From: Phlyctochytrium arcticum
Taxonomy: Eukaryota > Chytridiomycota > Chytridiomycetes > Chytridiales > Chytridiaceae
DNA: 64,000 bases
Direction of reading: 5' to 3'
Assembly: GCA_025602905.1 (NCBI GenBank)
Contig: JAHLKI010000010.1
Coordinates: 744,001-808,000 of the forward strand
The translations under genes and the position numbers were made by a program. The notes beneath the pieces are model-generated. The model saw only the letters and a program-made list of their open reading frames with translations, was not told the DNA's origin and ran no database searches. Positions 54,072 to 64,000 of the stretch are shown in pieces (within the stretch, counting starts at the first letter, position 1; every line of letters starts with the position of its first letter).

Positions 54072-56035
54072 ATGCCTCAGCAGATGCTGCGATGGGCACT
54101 GGGCCGCTCTTTGATCTACCGCGGCCCTCAGCGTCTCGGCCTCCGGTCAAAGAGTTCTAAAACTGCCGCAGTCAGCAACGTACCAGAACATGTCGGCAGT
54201 GTTGGCAGCCCATACCGCAAGCATATTCTCCTGGGTACTAGTCAGCCTCCCGCTAGTTGGGCTCCCAAATTGGAGAAGACGGACACCTTCATGAAGCAAC
54301 TGTCACCCTTCCTCGACGACTCGGATGCGGGTTACAAGGTCTCTGCAAGCACGGATGCCACTACGAATGGGGAATCAGGGACAAGAACAATAAGAATCTT
54401 GCCTGGAAATACTCAACTTGTCGTTCCCGAAAATGATGGCAAGACTGCCGCGAAGGCTATTCAACAACACCCGACTGATGCAGGCAACTCGAGAAACAAG
54501 ACTCGGCATCAGATTTTAGTTTGCGTACATGGCCAGCGGGACTGCCGATGTGGCGAACAAGGCGTTCGTCTCTTTGATTCACTCAAGAAGGAGATAGAAA
54601 ATCGTGGACTGAGTCAGGACATTGAAGTCAGTGGCGTGTCCCACATCGGCGGCCATAAATATGCCGGAAATGCCATTGTTTATCCGAGGGGGGACTGGTA
54701 TGGCTTACTTGACAGTCCAGATGCAAAATCCCTGATATCGGCGGTCCTGGAAGATAGAGTTTGGTGGGACCGCTGGCGGGGGCGCATGGATTTGACCAAG
54801 GATCAAGAAATTGCGCTCTACCAACAGTCTACTTCTGTCTCGGCTCTAGCTCCACATCCTCAAACAAAAGTAGCGGAAAGCATTTCTGTGACGTATATTA
54901 TGCCTGACAATACCACAAAAACTTTATCCGTTCCTTGCGGCAAGCGACTCATGGAAGTGGGCAAAGAAGCCGACATTCCGACAATTGACGGAACGTGCGG
55001 AGGGAACTTGGAGTGTGCCACATGCCACATTATTGTTGACCCTGCATACGCTTCGAAGCTGCCCCCTGTTACCGAGGAAGAGGAAGACATACTCGAGGTA
55101 ACTCTCTCTGTCACTCTTTACTGCCGTCGGAATATCGTAGCTAATTTGATCTTTTGTTAGTACGCAATCGGCCGCACACCAAAGTAAGTGGCATCTCTTT
55201 ACTTTTGTGATAGGGATTCGGGTTAATGTTCCTATCATTTGGCAGCTCGCGACTGTCGTGTCAGCTGACGGCCAAGAAGGATCTTGATGGGCTTCGGCTA
55301 CAGGTCGCTTCACCTGTCCCAAAACCTTTCCCCGCTCGGTCCTTTTCCACTTCCGCTAGACCGATTCTCTCAATAACCAGTATCCTTCCTGGCCAATCAC
55401 GCCTTATTCCCACCCCACCATTCTCCCGCTCCTTCTCCGCTATCCCTTCCTCACAGGCGGAAGGTCCCCGTCAGGAGCAGCCAGAACAGTCACCACCGAA
55501 AAGGGATATCAAGTCTCTCACTCGAGAATACGGCCCTATCGCTGTCGCTGTCTACCTGACATTCTCATTCTCAACCTTCCTTCTTTGCCTTGGCCTTATC
55601 TCTACCTACGAAATCGACGCTGCAAAACTCTCCGAGGTCTTTACGACCTTAAAGTCATACCTGGGAATTGCCGCACCATCCCCCAGTGAAGTCGAGGAAG
55701 AAGCTGAACCAAAGCAGTCGGAATTGTTTAATCTACTTCCCGAACGTTTCAGAACACCCGAAGTCCGTGCGGGCGCTACAATGGTCCTCCTAGCTATGGC
55801 AATGACCAAACTCTTTTTACCCATCAAGTTGGGTCTTACCGCCGCAGTAACGCCGCTAGTCGCAAAGCGGTTGCGTACCATGGGGTTCCATTTAGGGACC
55901 AAGGGCGGCTATAAAGATGCCGCAGTACGGGTCAAGAGTGAGGTCAAGGTTCGCACTGACCGGGTCAAAGAACGAGCTGATAGAGTCAAGGAAGGGGTCA
56001 AAGAACGGGCGGAAAAGTTTAGAGACCGAGAGTGA
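54072..56035 (+). CDS. Three-domain mitochondrial protein: Apd1/Aim32-like ferredoxin + adrenodoxin-type ferredoxin + FAM210 (DUF1279)
   Basis: Exons 54072-55097, 55161-55183 and 55246-56035 join in frame to give 612 residues. A basic presequence (MLRWALGRSLIYRGPQRLGL) suggests mitochondrial import. Domain 1 is the thioredoxin-like Suc/Fer fold: ILVCVHGQRDCRCGEQG and SHIGGHKYAGNAIVYPRGDW, keeping the two Cys and two His expected to bind a [2Fe-2S] cluster in Apd1/Aim32. Domain 2 is adrenodoxin-like: GTCGGNLECATCHIIV gives three ligands and RLSCQL, after the last intron, the fourth. Domain 3, after a Ser/Pro linker, is DUF1279 (DIKSLTREYGPIAVAVYLTF with a membrane helix), ending in a charged coiled coil with repeated DRVKERA units. 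No stop lies between domains. An in-frame ATG inside the last intron (55226) offers an alternative start. Confidence 0.82.
55226..55245 (+). other. In-frame ATG within the last intron of the fusion gene (possible alternative start)
   Basis: The last 20 bases of intron 55184-55245 contain ATG in frame with exon 3 (MFLSFGSSRLSCQL...). Translation from it would yield a 269-residue DUF1279 protein whose N-terminus, rich in Ser/Arg with SFSTSARPIL, resembles a mitochondrial presequence. This start would make a stand-alone FAM210-like protein from an unspliced or internally initiated transcript. Confidence 0.4.
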
Positions 56036-56214: not shown

Positions 56215-56286
56215 GCCCGCTTAGCTCAGTGGTAGAGCGTGAGGCTTTTAACCTTAAGGTCGTGGGTTCGACACCCACAGCGGGCG
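56215..56286 (+). tRNA. tRNA-Lys (UUU)
   Basis: A 72-nt intronless tRNA. The acceptor stem GCCCGCT pairs with AGCGGGC; the D arm has TAGCTCAGTGGTAGAG. The anticodon stem TGAGG/CCTTA closes the loop CTTTTAA, giving anticodon UUU. The T arm GTGGGTTCGACACCCAC is perfect. Internal A and B boxes are intact. A T7 run follows 7 bases downstream as RNA polymerase III terminator. Confidence 0.95.
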
Positions 56287-56292
56287 CATCCC

Positions 56293-56299: not shown

Positions 56300-57119
56300 G
56301 TCTTTTCTTGGATTCTGTCTCACTTTCGAACTCGTATTCAGATTTTACTCTTTTATATAGAACTCAACTCGGTGGATGCAAGGGAAAAAAAATCCACTGA
56401 AGAGGGTACTTGCTGCTAAATCAAACGCCATGTCATGCGCAATACCAAGTTGGTAAAATAATATAGCTTATGCTAATAAGGGACACCCACAAAAAACCGT
56501 ACGTTTTTATTCCAATCTTGAGAAACGTAAGTTAATTGTAATACTGTATGTGTATCTGTTTTATGAATCCAAGTTCGTACTTTAAAGTTGTTGCGGCAGG
56601 ATAGCTATGGATAGCTTTTGCATCCAGATTGAGCTCAGAATTTGACTCAGTCGTATGTTGATAATATTTACCAGTGTTCTTAACAAAAAAAACTGTACCG
56701 GTAGGTCAAAATTACATGGACGAGTTGCTCATCGCCAATGGGATGGTCACAGGTAGATTCAAGGTTTGAGAGGTTTGGCCAATGTAGAAAGTTGCAGCTG
56801 TGGATCAGTCACGTCAGTGTAGCAAATCAAGTGCGTAAGTGTTTCAAGTGTTTCAGTGTTATGCACTACTTATATCTAACGCACATGCCATACGCTTCTC
56901 CACCATCTTCTTAACTATTCCACAATCTTGTCATAGCCAATAAAGATGGGTGAACTGTATGATACTTGGTTGGAGGGGGTTCGGGTTTGTCCTTTAAAAG
57001 GTCCCCTATAAATGATATCCCCATACTCCATACAAATAGAGCCTACTACTTCATATCTTCTTCGTCGTTCAGCACTGCGTCACAACAAATATCAATATCG
57101 ATAGGTCTACAGTAGCAAC
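56300..57119. other. Intergenic region upstream of the NADAR gene
   Basis: About 800 AT-rich bases. Apart from the TATA-like box at 57007, I recognise nothing. Confidence 0.4.
57007..57013 (+). promoter_or_regulatory. TATA-like box of the NADAR gene
   Basis: TATAAAT lies 107 bases upstream of the NADAR ATG, a plausible core promoter position. Confidence 0.4.
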
Positions 57120-57611
57120 ATGGCAGACACTATCAATTTCTACAGTACCTCGTCTCCAAATGGGTTCATGTCAAACTTTTACCCAGCCAGAATACTCGTC
57201 GACGGCAAGCTTTGGCCAAGTACGGAACACTACTTTCAAGCAATGAAGTTTTCTGGTACAAAGGACGAAAGCATTGTGGAGAAGATCCGGTTGAACGATT
57301 CGCCAGTCAAAGCAACACAATTTGGTCGAAATAGAACGTACAGACTCAGACCCGACTGGGACATTGAATATACGGATGCCAATGGGAAGATCACCAAGAC
57401 GAAAATCGAGGTCATGAGGAAAGCAGTACGAGCAAAGTTCACTCAACACCTTTATCTGAAAGAACAACTATTGGACACTGCCGGCAAGAATATTGTGGAA
57501 CACACAAAGAACGATTCATACTGGGGCGATGGAGGCGATGGGAGTGGAACGAACATGCTGGGGAAACTTCTTGTTGAACTGCGAGATGAACTCCTACAGG
57601 AAGCGGACTGA
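57120..57611 (+). CDS. NADAR/YbiA-like domain protein
   Basis: A single-exon gene of 163 residues that is almost entirely one NADAR (DUF1768) domain. It has INFYSTSSPNGFMSNFYPA near the start, WPSTEHYFQAMKF, ATQFGRNR, VMRKAVRAKFTQH and the C-terminal NDSYWGDGGDGSGTNMLGK. Most family landmarks (GE/TEHYFQA, W-DG..G-N-LGK) are present. YbiA-type enzymes cleave N-glycosidic bonds: some act on a riboflavin intermediate and some reverse ADP-ribosylation of guanine. Which substrate applies here cannot be told from sequence. No targeting signal is visible, so the cytosol is likely. A TATA-like box lies upstream. Confidence 0.9.
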   Translation: MADTINFYSTSSPNGFMSNFYPARILVDGKLWPSTEHYFQAMKFSGTKDESIVEKIRLNDSPVKATQFGRNRTYRLRPDWDIEYTDANGKITKTKIEVMRKAVRAKFTQHLYLKEQLLDTAGKNIVEHTKNDSYWGDGGDGSGTNMLGKLLVELRDELLQEAD

Positions 57612-59241: not shown

Positions 59242-62200
59242 TTATTGGGACTTTCTTTTCTTTGCGGACTCTAGCTCGCTGATCCAGTTTTTAGCCGCAG
59301 GTCCAGTTGCAAACTGCAATACAATTTCCTTCCCATCGCTTGTAGACAGTCTGACAGCATCTTGGACGGCGGACTCTTCATTGGTGTCGAGGGAGATCGT
59401 GCTGCCACTGACATCCGCTGCGGAAAGTTGAACTCCCTGTCAAAATAAAGTTTTATCAATGCCGTTCAACAAGCTATTTGTCACAAAACTTACAGTAGCG
59501 GAACCCTCCGAGGAGAGTAACAGGTTGCCGTCCCGGAGCATGACATTATGAACCCGCGACGCTTTAACTGCGGGCGGTAACACCGATTTATTGATTGAGA
59601 GTTTTGCAGGGTAAGGTGTACCGAGTGCAGTGGACTTTGTTGCTGAATGTGCAGAGCTCAAAGCAACCTAATCATTGCAGCAAATGTATGGTCAAGCTGT
59701 TAGAAAAGACGCATGGAAAAACATGGAATCAAAGCCGTACATACATTCATGATCTCATCCCTCATGTTCCCCTCTTCGTCATCCTTGTTGGAGCCCATCG
59801 AAAGAGCTAATTTGTAGGCCGGAAGCGTTACCAACAGAATTCCGGCTGCCGTGAGCGCAATCGCTATTCGTACAGCCACTTGTTTTGACCCAGGCAAGAA
59901 ATCGGACAGCATCAAGGCGACCAGAGCCGCCCCTAGCACCAGGATATTAACACTATTCACCAGTAGCATTGTCGTCTCACGCGCTGGAATGGATCTGGAG
60001 GCGTTGATTTTGAGGGTGAGGTACAGCATGACACCAGATAAACCGGCAAGGAAGATCACGTAGACAGGGTTGGTGTGGCAAGTATAAAATCGGTGGTCGG
60101 ATGCGGACTTATATAGAAGTGTGGGAGAAGGCGAATCTTTTGCCAGCCAAACTATCATCAAAATCTGTAAAGTCAAATGTCAGTACGTATTGTTTCTTTT
60201 TTTTTTTAATTTTTATCTGCTCACCAAGTAAAGCGAAACCAGTCCAAAAACTGCACTCAGAGCTAACGAACTTTCCTTCTTTGTGGGGCCCTTCGAAAGC
60301 GCAACTGGATTCCACTGTTTGATGTAGTAGTACAATGATTTCACCATAAAAACGGACACAACTAGCCCAATCGAGAATGGCATCAAGACCACTTGCATAA
60401 TACACGATGCGCGAGTTGGTTGCATCGTGTCCGTCACTGGGAACAAAAACAACGCCGCGATACCGCAGCATAGCACATAGTTGAGGGGATTCACCGACCG
60501 ATGCAGAACCGCAGACTGCCTTTTGACGCACGATACGAGCAGCGTGAAAAGGCTGAACATGCCGCCAATACTCGCCACCACTACGGCCAGCACAGATCCT
60601 GCGTTACTTGCCGCAATATTGCTCAACTCTCCAAGCTGCAACCTTGCCGTGACAGCAGCGTGAGGAAAAGCGGTTGACAGGCTGGTTCCCGCATCTGAAG
60701 CAACCGAGTTTAGCTGTGCTGCCACCAGGAAATCTCCAGTACTGTTCTTAGACAGCGAGAACTTGAAGATCATAGCGGTGGAATTCCCTTGCCGGTAATC
60801 CCTGAATACGACATTATAGAACCCGTTGAACAAGGCCTGCAAATTATCGTAAATAGCGTCCCTTGTATTGAGCGAGTAAGGCGCATCCGTGCTGATAGGT
60901 ATATCAAGAACGAGAGAGTCGTTGACAGATCGCTTGATTGAGCAGTCCCATTCTTCATATTGTGGGTTGATGAGGCAGGAGCAGTTACCGTCATTCACGC
61001 AGAGACCGTTTGAAAGGCAGCCCCTCGGACATTTGTGGGTGTAACACGTTTTTTGCAAGTAACCAATCACTGGCCGTTCCACATCCGGATATGTGCATGG
61101 CAGCACCTCAACCGGCAAAGTAATGTTTTGAAGCTCGTCAGCACCTGCATCCGCATGATGACCCACTTTCAGGTGGAAATTTCCAGCTGGGCCCAAGAGA
61201 CGCACATTCAAGAAGTTCGCCTCGCTAAAAAGAATGATGGCGCTTTTTTGACCAGTCAAAGCAGAGACACCATTCGTATCATTGGTTGCAACAACTTCCG
61301 CTTTCAAAATGATGGCATTATCATAAGTTGTCGTATAAAATGCTTGACCAACGGCATCGACTGCTGTGACGGTAAATTTGGGCACTAGTTCACCGGACTT
61401 TAGTTTCGGTGATTGCCATGGCTTCCCAAGCTGGAGACTTTTTGGACCAGTTGCAAAATTTGCACCACCCTTGGCCACATTTCCGATGTAGGTGTTGTTT
61501 GCGTAGTCAGGGACCGCTTTCACCTCAGTCGAGTACCAGGCCGCTCCACGCTGCGCGTTGTTATCCTGGAAAAGATTTCCTCGGACGTCCACTTGACCAG
61601 GGTTTTGCAGGCCAGAAATGTGGATACCACCACCCACGATGGCTTTGTTGCCCCGAAAAACACTATTTATCACACTCAGTCTGGTATTTCCCGACGTCAG
61701 GTCGCAACGTATGACGCCCCCGTTGCCGTCTGCTGAGTTGTTCACAAAGGTACAGGAATCAAAGAGCACAGAATCCCCACAAGCATTTAAAATGGGGCTG
61801 CTGGATACCCCAGCATTGTCTACAAATTTCAGTGCGTCAACAAAACTGACAAGACGGGCAGGCGCTCCCAAAACTTACTTGAAAATGTGGTATTCCTCAC
61901 CATAACCGAGGCAAGTGGCCCCTGGAACGCCTGCCTATACAAAGCCAAAACATTGTAATTGTCCCTGAAAAGGGAATTTGTCACCGTAATGTTCGCTCCG
62001 GTGGTGTCGAGAATCGTGTTCCCCTTCATGTTCCGGAAAGTGCACTTATCGATTAGTCCCGCGAATGGCGGATAGAATCCTTCGACAATTGTGAACAGAT
62101 GATAATAGAGTAAGAGTCCTGAAGGGAGAGCGTGAGTAGTAGCTCTGTGGGCGGGTATCCGTATACTCTAACCGTCAAAATCGGAATTTCTCACTTGGAA

Positions 62201-64000
62201 TTTAAGTAGGTCAAAGAATTTAAAGCAGGACCCAGGACATTCAAAGGGCCCTTTAAAACGGCAGCCATCCATTCGAAAAATCCCGTTGGCGGCCTTGAGC
62301 AGTGAGTCCTTCGTGTAGACATACTGTTTGGTGAGGAATGTAACGTTCTTGTTGTCCGAGCGTTAGTTAAATTATGGTGCACAACCATTAAAACGAATCG
62401 GCCTTGTTGTCCCATACCTGCATATCCAACATTGGTCCTTCAGATGCGCTCAGCACCGAGACGACGTTGCTGCCTGTGGAATTAGGTTGGTGGACGTCCA
62501 TTCTGATCCCTCCGCAATATGAGCATTCTTACCAGTAGTAAGCATATAGGCATTTCTGATGGTGAATAGTGCGCTACTTCCCTCGCCAGACCAACCTCCG
62601 CTGCAATCTTCTGATGTGTGAGAATTCTCGCATATATCGCGATACTAAGAGTGCTCACCCCACCTTCTGAATAGATATCACTTAATATGAGATTTCCATA
62701 AAAGTTGGTGATTGCGGCGTCGTAGAATCGATACATTGATAACCTTGCGACACTACCCGTCGCCCTGTTCACGCCGAGAAATTTTGCTCTTGTATCCTTG
62801 ACGGTCACATTCTCCATAGTCAGTGTACCTCCGGTTATTACCTAAAAAAAATTGAGAGCAGTATCGATGCTGCTCATTCTTAATAGTTTACCTGAAACAG
62901 AATATTCTCGACGGGTGTAATAATACCAGCAGGGGGTGCCTCTGAGCTGGGTTTCTCGTATACCATATTTTGGACCGTCAAGACGGAACTGACTCCCCCA
63001 ACCTGTTTGAAATGAAAACAATTTAGAGTCGAAAATCATATGGCGCACTGCCTGACTTTGGTCTTACCCGAAACACCCGATTTGAATTTATATGTAACCA
63101 AACATTCCGCAGATGCCAATCTCGCATAGTGTGGTTTCCAGCGCTTATTTCGAAATATACGGCCGCGAAACTAGCATCTAGAAAACATTCCCATCAGAAA
63201 CGATTCGTGCCCCGAAACAACAACCAAATATGAGTTCCCACCAACGACTCGGACGTTTGTCAAGTGAGTGATTCCGCTAGAGAAAACCGCAACGAGTTCG
63301 GTTCCATTGCGCATCGATATGTCATTTTTCAACATAACCCCTCCTGAGGTGGTTTCTGGGGTGCGGAAGAGTCAGTGTCGGGAATCAAAATACTCCGTAA
63401 AGTGCAGGTCAACTAACGAAATTGAAACCTCGTATAAGAATTTTTCGCCGCCACTGATCCGCCCTCCATAAACACGCCGTCCAGAGAAAGCGTAGCATTG
63501 TTCTTTCCTTCGAAATACCAGGTGAAGAGACCGTTCTGACCTTTCAAGGTAACATCTCGAAACGTAAGTCCTGCTGATTCTCGGACATAAAAATCAACTC
63601 TAAAGGTTTGATTCTGTAAGTAATTATCGTGGAATCGAGGAAATTTGTGGGATTTTATGTCAAATAATACCCTTTTTGCGGGAGACTTGCAAAAGTAGAA
63701 GGGAAGCTATACTTGTGCTTTCTTTGCCGACACCAATGATTTCCAGAATAACTGTCTTGGTCGTACCACCATCCCAGAGATATAGTCCTCCCACACTTGT
63801 GTTAAACTCATACCGGCCAGCTGCCAGCTCAATTCGCACAGTATTAGTGGTCAGAGCATTTCCGACAACCAATGTTTGGGCATCCAAGATGGCCGCATCT
63901 ATATTTTTCCAAGGATACAAAATAGTACCATCCTGAGTCGGGGCTAAACTTGACACATTGCAGTAAATGACATGTGGATCCGCCGAGCAAAATGCTGCTA
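59242..64000 (-). CDS. Class C-type GPCR with beta-helix ectodomain, EGF-like module and PH-like C-terminus (5' end outside window)
   Basis: At least 14 exons read from the window edge to a stop at 59242. Main exons: 64000-63687, 63613-63418, 63355-63242, 63177-63068, 63002-62892, 62841-62664, 62610-62533, 62473-62418, 62347-62195, about 62100-61879, 61819-60225, 60164-59746, 59667-59494, 59436-59242. The ectodomain repeats beta-helix turns (LTFRDVTLKGQNG, LFDSCTFVNNSADGNGG, INSVFRGNKAIVGGG). A Cys-rich EGF-like piece follows (CPRGCLSNGLCVNDGNCSC). Seven membrane helices start at VLAVVVASIGGMFSLFTLLV, with Cys before TM3 (ASCIMQVVL) and in loop 2 (FYTCHTNP), the class C disulfide. The cytoplasmic tail ends in a PH-like fold (VMLRDGNLLLSS ... 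GPAAKNWISELESAKK). The join near 62195-62100 is unresolved: the best donor and acceptor are out of frame. The signal peptide must lie beyond the window. Confidence 0.8.

What the first reader, a model, noticed from the sequence alone, without database searches (positions are those of the whole stretch)
59242..64000. Chimeric receptor: parallel beta-helix ectodomain + EGF-like module + class C 7TM + PH-like tail
The reading frame across the exons places a pectin-lyase-type beta-helix, a six-Cys EGF-like piece, seven hydrophobic helices with the class C extracellular disulfide cysteines, and a C-terminal PH-like strand/helix unit in one chain. Canonical class C receptors use a Venus-flytrap domain to sense ligand; here a beta-helix, a fold common in polysaccharide-binding or degrading proteins, takes its place. 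Inference: a surface sensor for cell-wall or host/substrate glycans, with the PH-like tail tethered to membrane lipids. I do not know of a described receptor with this exact layout.
Basis: partly seen in the sequence, partly recalled or inferred. Interest (0 to 1): 0.87.

Follow-up and report, generated by a model that had tools for sequence, protein, structure and literature searches.

The report
Paired beta-helix receptors in zoosporic fungus
A fungus with swimming spores carries a surface receptor that joins a polysaccharide-type beta-helix to a glutamate-receptor-like membrane core and an internal PH-like domain, and this gene sits back to back with a sister receptor in an arrangement seen at four places in its genome, which suggests that the two work as a couple.

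Summary
One minus-strand gene encodes about 1,290 residues: hydrophobic leader, beta-helix (Pfam Beta_helix 31.3 bits), EGF-like cysteines (below Pfam's cut-off), conserved stalk, class C seven-helix core (7tm_3 63.2 bits; 28 of 28 PDB hits are metabotropic glutamate receptors) and a C-terminal PH-like domain. Its ATG is 19 bases outside the window. Beta-helix + EGF + class C 7TM is not new: Seppala et al. 2016 described it in anaerobic gut fungi. Two things appear new, in one genome. (1) PH-like tails: assigned in 20 of 23 class C genes, 17 of them beyond all shuffles, whatever the ectodomain. (2) The eight receptors of the beta-helix type form four head-to-head pairs, 491-661 bp apart, each one clade-A member (this gene) and one clade-B member. 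Trees of A and of B match the physical pairing, so a divergent pair was probably copied as a unit. The four A members lack an arginine at the cytosolic end of TM3 that the four B members and 13 of 13 other aligned receptors keep. Best reading: an asymmetric receptor pair, possibly an obligate heterodimer like GABA-B, sensing surface polymers. Ligand, dimerisation and PH ligand are untested.

The parts
63671..64000 (-). Exon 1 (CDS starts at 64019, outside the window): hydrophobic leader and start of the beta-helix; 3' end of this exon uncertain
63418..63573 (-). Exon 2, beta-helix; 5' end uncertain
63242..63355 (-). Exon 3, beta-helix
63068..63177 (-). Exon 4, beta-helix
62892..63002 (-). Exon 5, beta-helix
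62659..62841 (-). Exon 6, beta-helix
62533..62555 (-). Exon 7 (weak, tiny)
62418..62469 (-). Exon 8 (uncertain ends)
62173..62323 (-).
61879..62118 (-). Exon 10, beta-helix
61569..62056 (-). Pfam Beta_helix match, aa 438-580 (across the intron 61878-61820), 31.3 bits over cut-off 25.9
   Evidence: coordinates
60225..61819 (-). Exon 11, aa 497-1028: beta-helix end, linker, EGF-like piece, stalk, TM1-TM4 in one open frame
60942..61046 (-). EGF-like cysteines C755-C789 (below Pfam cut-off)
   Evidence: coordinates
60630..60923 (-). Conserved stalk, aa 796-893, no match in Pfam or PDB
   Evidence: coordinates
59829..60602 (-). 7tm_3 match, aa 903-1140 (across the intron 60224-60165)
   Evidence: coordinates
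60402..60404 (-). C969, TM3 end of the class C disulfide
60078..60080 (-). C1057, extracellular loop 2 end of the disulfide
59745..60164 (-). Exon 12, TM5-TM7 and start of the tail
59494..59667 (-). Exon 13, linker and first half of the PH-like domain
59242..59436 (-). Exon 14, second half of the PH-like domain and stop
59245..59598 (-). PH-like domain, aa 1192-1290 (across the intron 59493-59437)
   Evidence: coordinates

Best explanation
This is the clade-A half of a divergently transcribed pair of class C receptors in a zoosporic fungus. Each half has a beta-helix-type ectodomain, a linker, an EGF-like knot, a stalk, a class C seven-helix core and a cytosolic PH-like domain. Proposed mechanism: the two halves are made together from the ~0.5 kb between them and assemble as a heterodimer on the zoospore or germling surface. 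The beta-helices bind a polymeric ligand, most likely a polysaccharide of substrate or host. The stalk passes the change to the 7TM dimer; the B half, with the canonical intracellular motif, engages the G protein, while the A half senses or modulates. The PH-like tails hold the dimer at a phosphoinositide-rich membrane patch or capture G-beta-gamma. Shown by sequence: anatomy, PH-like tails on most class C genes, four A/B pairs, matching A and B trees, absence of the arginine in all four A members. Inferred: co-expression, dimerisation, division of labour, ligand, PH ligand.
For: Anatomy. PH tail: a profile of 18 tails against the PDB gives 59 hits at E <= 10; the 10 at E <= 0.001 (best 3.4e-5) and, from recalled knowledge of these proteins, 58 of the 59 are PH-domain carriers. 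Pfam PH matches 9 of the 18 tails singly at E <= 10, best 4.4e-4. Tails lie in the same uninterrupted ORF as late TM helices in L018, L019, L015 and L020. Pairs: four A-type and four B-type loci, each A facing a B head to head; spacers 491, 661, 633 and 601 bp. Quartet trees: A ((focus,L024),(L026,A21)) p-AU 0.99 against 0.011 and 0.011; B ((nbr,L023),(L027,L022)) p-AU 0.999 against 0.0014 and 0.0010; these are the physical partners. A and B are each supported clades, 100/100 and 98/98; one common clade is not rejected, p 0.465. TM3/loop-2 motif KxxR: A 0 of 4, B 4 of 4 (L023 read), other class C rows 13 of 13. G-alpha genes are present.
Against: No expression, structure or binding data. The focal PH tail has no PH hit on its own in Pfam or PDB, and an exon-wise scan of the genome with the Pfam PH model (40 best candidates) rings at none of the class C loci. 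Three tails are weak: L015 1, L012 2, L011 7 of 1000 shuffles as high. EGF is below threshold. Beta_helix stays under its cut-off in the assembled ectodomains of 5 of 5 scanned sister receptors, though one exon of L026 passes it (28.7 bits). No shared word in clear excess of shuffles in the four spacers. AlphaFold2 on the window exon without relatives was uninformative (mean pLDDT 35.5). An inverted duplication can persist without heterodimers. In 7TM-only trees focus groups with L026 (93/85, A21 not included) or the order of focus, L024 and L026 is unresolved; the concordance rests on the longer alignment. Only one genome could be searched.
Confidence: 0.55

Rival explanations
1. The pair is a frozen inverted duplication: A and B are independent homodimeric receptors that stay adjacent because segments were copied whole, with at most shared regulation.
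For: A and B are compatible with one common clade (p 0.465), as an inverted tandem duplication would give; no shared spacer word was found.
Against: Four of four loci keep both members head to head although members of a clade share only 28-44% identity; none of the other 15 class C genes has a head-to-head class C neighbour.
Confidence: 0.3
2. An ordinary member of the known non-canonical fungal class C receptors with a beta-helix ectodomain, working singly as a carbohydrate sensor; pairing and PH tail have no special meaning.
For: Seppala et al. 2016 report a pectin-lyase fold in about 30% of gut fungal class C receptors, sometimes with PbH1 repeats and in a few cases EGF (PMC5168858 passages).
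Against: Does not explain the A/B pairing or the tails on most class C genes.
Confidence: 0.13
3. The A member is a surface adhesin or decoy that uses the 7TM core only as an anchor and no longer couples to G proteins, even in a dimer.
For: Absence of the conserved arginine in 4 of 4 A members and a long A branch (1.71 changes per column).
Against: The TM3 lysine and the loop-3 glutamate are kept in all four A rows, and a PH-like tail is kept, which a mere anchor would not need.
Confidence: 0.12
4. Gene-model artefact: two or more genes fused by the reader, or a tail that belongs to another transcript.
For: No transcript data; several small exons are uncertain.
Against: Beta-helix end to TM4 is one open frame of 553 codons; in four paralogues late TM helices and tail share one ORF.
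Confidence: 0.03

Closest known systems
Gut-fungal class C GPCRs with pectin-lyase fold (Seppala et al. 2016, PMC5168858)
   Same: Beta-helix, sometimes EGF-like, then class C 7TM; no ANF domain
   Different: No PH tail and no gene pairing in the passages read
Glutamate-type GPCRs of Spizellomyces and Allomyces (Krishnan et al. 2012, PMC3251606) and fungal class 16 (Liu et al. 2025, PMC12842992)
   Same: Class C 7TM enriched in zoosporic fungi
   Different: Ectodomains named in the passages are ANF and periplasmic-binding types; 'beta helix' (or 'beta-helix') and 'PH domain' had 0 occurrences in both texts
GABA-B and T1R obligate heterodimers (recalled; T1R heterodimer seen only in a search listing)
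   Same: Two class C subunits with unequal roles
   Different: Different ectodomains, no PH tail; here dimerisation is only inferred
GPCR-bigrams such as GPCR-PIPK and GPCR-INPP (PMC5784254 passages)
   Same: 7TM receptor with a C-terminal cytosolic domain tied to phosphoinositide signalling
   Different: Accessory domains described there are catalytic; here a PH-like domain
Head-to-head immune receptor pairs of plants (recalled)
   Same: Divergent pair of unequal receptors kept together
   Different: Unrelated intracellular NLR proteins

Membership tests
Class C (glutamate) GPCR | 7tm_3 core with seven helices | tested here: met
   63.2 bits, cut-off 33.5; seven hydropathy peaks; 28 of 28 PDB hits at E <= 10 are mGlu receptors, best 6.1e-7
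Class C (glutamate) GPCR | TM3 to extracellular loop 2 disulfide cysteines | tested here: met
   C969 and C1057 align with mGluR1 cysteines
Class C (glutamate) GPCR | Venus flytrap (ANF) ectodomain | tested here: not met
   No such Pfam match; Beta_helix instead
Class C (glutamate) GPCR | NCD3G nine-cysteine domain | tested here: not met
   No match
Class C (glutamate) GPCR | Dimerisation and G-protein coupling | not testable with these tools
   Needs experiment
Non-canonical fungal class C receptors with pectin-lyase fold | Beta-helix ectodomain before class C 7TM | tested here: met
   Beta_helix over cut-off; one open frame
Non-canonical fungal class C receptors with pectin-lyase fold | EGF-like domain (in a few of them) | tested here: inconclusive
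   EGF models below cut-off; sister receptor L024 EGF_Tenascin 23.0 against 25
PH domain (PF00169) | Focal tail alone reaches Pfam's cut-off | tested here: not met
   No PH row at E <= 1; no class C locus in the genome scan
PH domain superfamily | Family profile of the tails finds PH domains | tested here: met
   Pfam PH in 9 of 18 members; focal tail fits the profile of the others
PH domain superfamily | Seven-strand barrel plus C-terminal helix | not tested
   No structure made: the focal tail is spliced, and own-genome loci are not named in the fold tool's list
GPCR-bigrams | Catalytic accessory domain | tested here: not met
   No catalytic Pfam match in the focal tail
Obligate class C heterodimers | Function needs two different subunits | not testable with these tools
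   Pairing evidence only

The most novel reading that the evidence does not exclude
Zoosporic fungi have a class of obligate heterodimeric polymer-sensing GPCRs encoded as head-to-head pairs: a G-protein-coupling B subunit and a divergent A subunit, both with beta-helix ectodomains and PH tails, duplicated pair by pair to give a combinatorial surface-sensing set.
Probability: 0.45. Interest if true: 0.8.

Novelty: new variant of a known kind. Interest (0 to 1): 0.66.

Why it matters
Class C receptors were thought absent from fungi until about 2012 (PMC3251606 abstract and PMC5168858 passages), and a 2026 review says that the glutamate-like fungal class still needs experimental validation (PMC13308352 passage). 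If the pairs are heterodimers, subunit asymmetry as in GABA-B would have a case outside animals with a non-flytrap ectodomain. A PH-like domain on most class C receptors of one genome would link them physically to phosphoinositides or G-beta-gamma. Both claims can be tested directly by co-expression and by scanning other chytrid genomes.

Tried and rejected
Homologue search in the large protein database could not be made (switched off). Structure prediction of window:60225-61817 without relatives gave mean pLDDT 35.5 and was not interpreted; no fold search was run on it. The stalk (7 of the 8 receptors; A21 left out) looked SEA-like by eye, but has no Pfam or PDB support, so no name is given. 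Shared words in the four spacers: no clear excess over shuffles. PF13229 searched exon by exon gave 3 places, two on C56 and one in L026, and missed the focal gene, so it is too insensitive to count beta-helix genes; A and B protein queries were used instead. The Pfam PH scan of the genome rang at no class C locus. Pfam on the ectodomains of 5 of the other 7 beta-helix-type receptors: Beta_helix 22.7 (L023), 21.3 (L024) and 23.9 bits (L026), all under the cut-off of 25.9; none in the neighbour and L022; L027 and A21 were not scanned. For these the assignment rests on homology to the focal gene, coil-like repeats seen by eye, one L026 exon at 28.7 bits and Chlam_PMP repeats over cut-off in L023. 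The tree held a wrongly cut L012 row and lacked A21; it was rebuilt.
Full report
What is there. The window is C10:744001-808000 of a 31.5 Mb, 91-contig genome. The genome is fungal and flagellate by its genes: 30 exon matches to chitin synthase, radial-spoke matches and G-alpha matches. The finding is one minus-strand gene. A home-made splice model gives 14 exons and 1,290 aa. The ATG is at window 64019, just outside the window. Exon 61819-60225 lies in an open frame of 553 codons that runs from beta-helix coils through the EGF-like cysteines and a stalk into TM4, so the central claim does not depend on splicing. Pfam finds Beta_helix (31.3 bits) and 7tm_3 (63.2 bits) over their cut-offs; EGF models stay below, and no PH model is hit. 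The 7TM core matches only metabotropic glutamate receptors in the PDB, 28 of 28 hits at E <= 10, best 6.1e-7, and the two class C disulfide cysteines align. The window coordinates of the domains were computed.

The PH-like tail. By grouping 35 exon matches to 7tm_3 (a lower bound) I count 22 class C genes; a 23rd, called A21 here, was missed by that search and found by tblastn. Their ectodomains, judged by eye from the translations, fall into beta-helix, ANF-like, type II binding-protein-like, TctC-like and LamG-like kinds; only the beta-helix kind was tested with Pfam. After TM7 most carry a stretch of about 100 residues that looks like the strand/helix pattern of PH domains, often with the helix tryptophan. 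I picked the stretches by eye. A profile of 18 of them (L026 left out because only half of it was resolved, A21 not yet known) against the PDB returns 59 hits at E <= 10. The 10 at E <= 0.001 and, by my recollection of what these proteins contain, 58 of the 59 are PH proteins; the exception is 8i03_B. Pfam PH matches 9 of the 18 singly at a permissive E <= 10, best 4.4e-4. Leave-one-out scoring of 19 tails against 1000 shuffles each: no shuffle as high for 16; 1 for L015, 2 for L012, 7 for L011. A21 gives 0 of 1000; the tails of L013 and L028 do not fit (277 and 468 of 1000). The tail of the second C12 gene is recognisable but lies in different frames and was not scored. So of 23 genes, 20 have an assigned tail (17 beyond all shuffles, 3 weaker), 2 lack it and 1 is unclear. 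In L018, L019, L015 and L020 the tail is in the same ORF as late TM helices. Against it: the focal tail on its own gets no PH hit in the PDB, and a genome scan with the Pfam PH model did not ring at any class C locus among its 40 candidates.

The pairs. Beyond the window, 491 bp upstream of the focal ATG, a second receptor starts on the other strand. It has beta-helix-like coils (by eye; Pfam Beta_helix not reached), the stalk, class C 7TM (60.7 bits on a 338-residue piece) and a PH-like tail. A genome-wide query with the A core ranks four A-type loci first, then B-type and other class C hits. A query with the L022 core finds the four B-type loci, then three A-type, then other class C genes; one with the neighbour's core finds three B-type loci first, with L022 below some other class C genes. 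The eight loci form four head-to-head pairs: focus/neighbour on C10, L024/L023 on C2, L026/L027 on C6, A21/L022 on C21, with 491, 661, 633 and 601 bp between ATGs. None of the other 15 class C genes has a head-to-head class C neighbour. On alignments of about 650-830 aa the A quartet groups focus with L024 and L026 with A21 (p-AU 0.99, alternatives 0.011), and the B quartet groups the neighbour with L023 and L027 with L022 (p-AU 0.999, alternatives 0.0014 and 0.0010). This is the grouping expected if pairs were copied as units. 7TM-only trees are less clear for A: without A21, focus grouped with L026 (93/85), against this grouping; with A21, A21 falls outside the other three (92/83), as its partner L022 does in B, but the three are unresolved. 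A and B are each clades (100/100 and 98/98), and a joint clade is not rejected, p 0.465; an inverted tandem duplication at the origin is therefore possible.

Asymmetry. At the cytosolic end of TM3 every class C row that covers it has a lysine. An arginine three residues later is present in 13 of 13 non-beta-helix rows and in 4 of 4 B members (the L023 residue sits beyond an exon edge and was read), but in 0 of 4 A members. L029 and the second C12 gene were not in that alignment; their fragments show NWRIF and KTMRV. All four A rows keep a glutamate in loop 3. From recalled knowledge, loop 2 is a main G-protein contact of class C receptors. I infer that B is the coupling half and A the modulating or sensing half, as in GABA-B.

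Function. The beta-helix fold is common among polysaccharide-active proteins (recalled; a similar argument is made in PMC5168858), and chytrid zoospores must choose a surface to settle on (recalled). A surface polymer as ligand is the most likely guess, perhaps one in three. PH domains may bind phosphoinositides, G-beta-gamma, or neither; no binding residues were tested.

Literature. Read as passages: PMC5168858, PMC3251606, PMC12842992, PMC12716839 (its Glutamate Receptors section in full), PMC13308352, PMC5784254. PMC6033456 was seen only in a search listing. Beta-helix plus EGF plus class C 7TM is published for gut fungi.

Verdict. The observed layout is real and mostly known in kind. The widespread PH-like tail and the four A/B pairs are the new parts, and they rest on one genome and on sequence alone.

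Noticed in passing
window 56215-56287 (+): tRNA-Lys (anticodon ttt) called by ARAGORN.
   Followed up: partly
window 55214-56035 (+): ORF with a FAM210A/B-like domain, 43.2 bits.
   Followed up: no
window 57105-57611 (+): ORF with a NADAR domain, 110.6 bits.
   Followed up: no
L011, L012 and L002 (C12:403-412k): Three similar class C receptors in tandem with LamG-like ectodomains (by eye); the tail of the middle one lies in different frames, so a pseudogene, introns or an assembly error.
   Followed up: partly
window 60630-60923 and paralogues: Stalk conserved between EGF-like piece and TM1 in 7 aligned beta-helix-type receptors, without a convincing Pfam or PDB match: perhaps an undescribed domain.
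   Followed up: partly
G000:C56:9806-10572: The strongest Beta_helix matches of the exon-wise genome scan, two neighbouring stretches, gene not examined.
   Followed up: no
G000: C71/C30 and C33/C53: Chitin synthase hits with identical scores on different contigs, perhaps unmerged haplotypes or recent duplicates.
   Followed up: no
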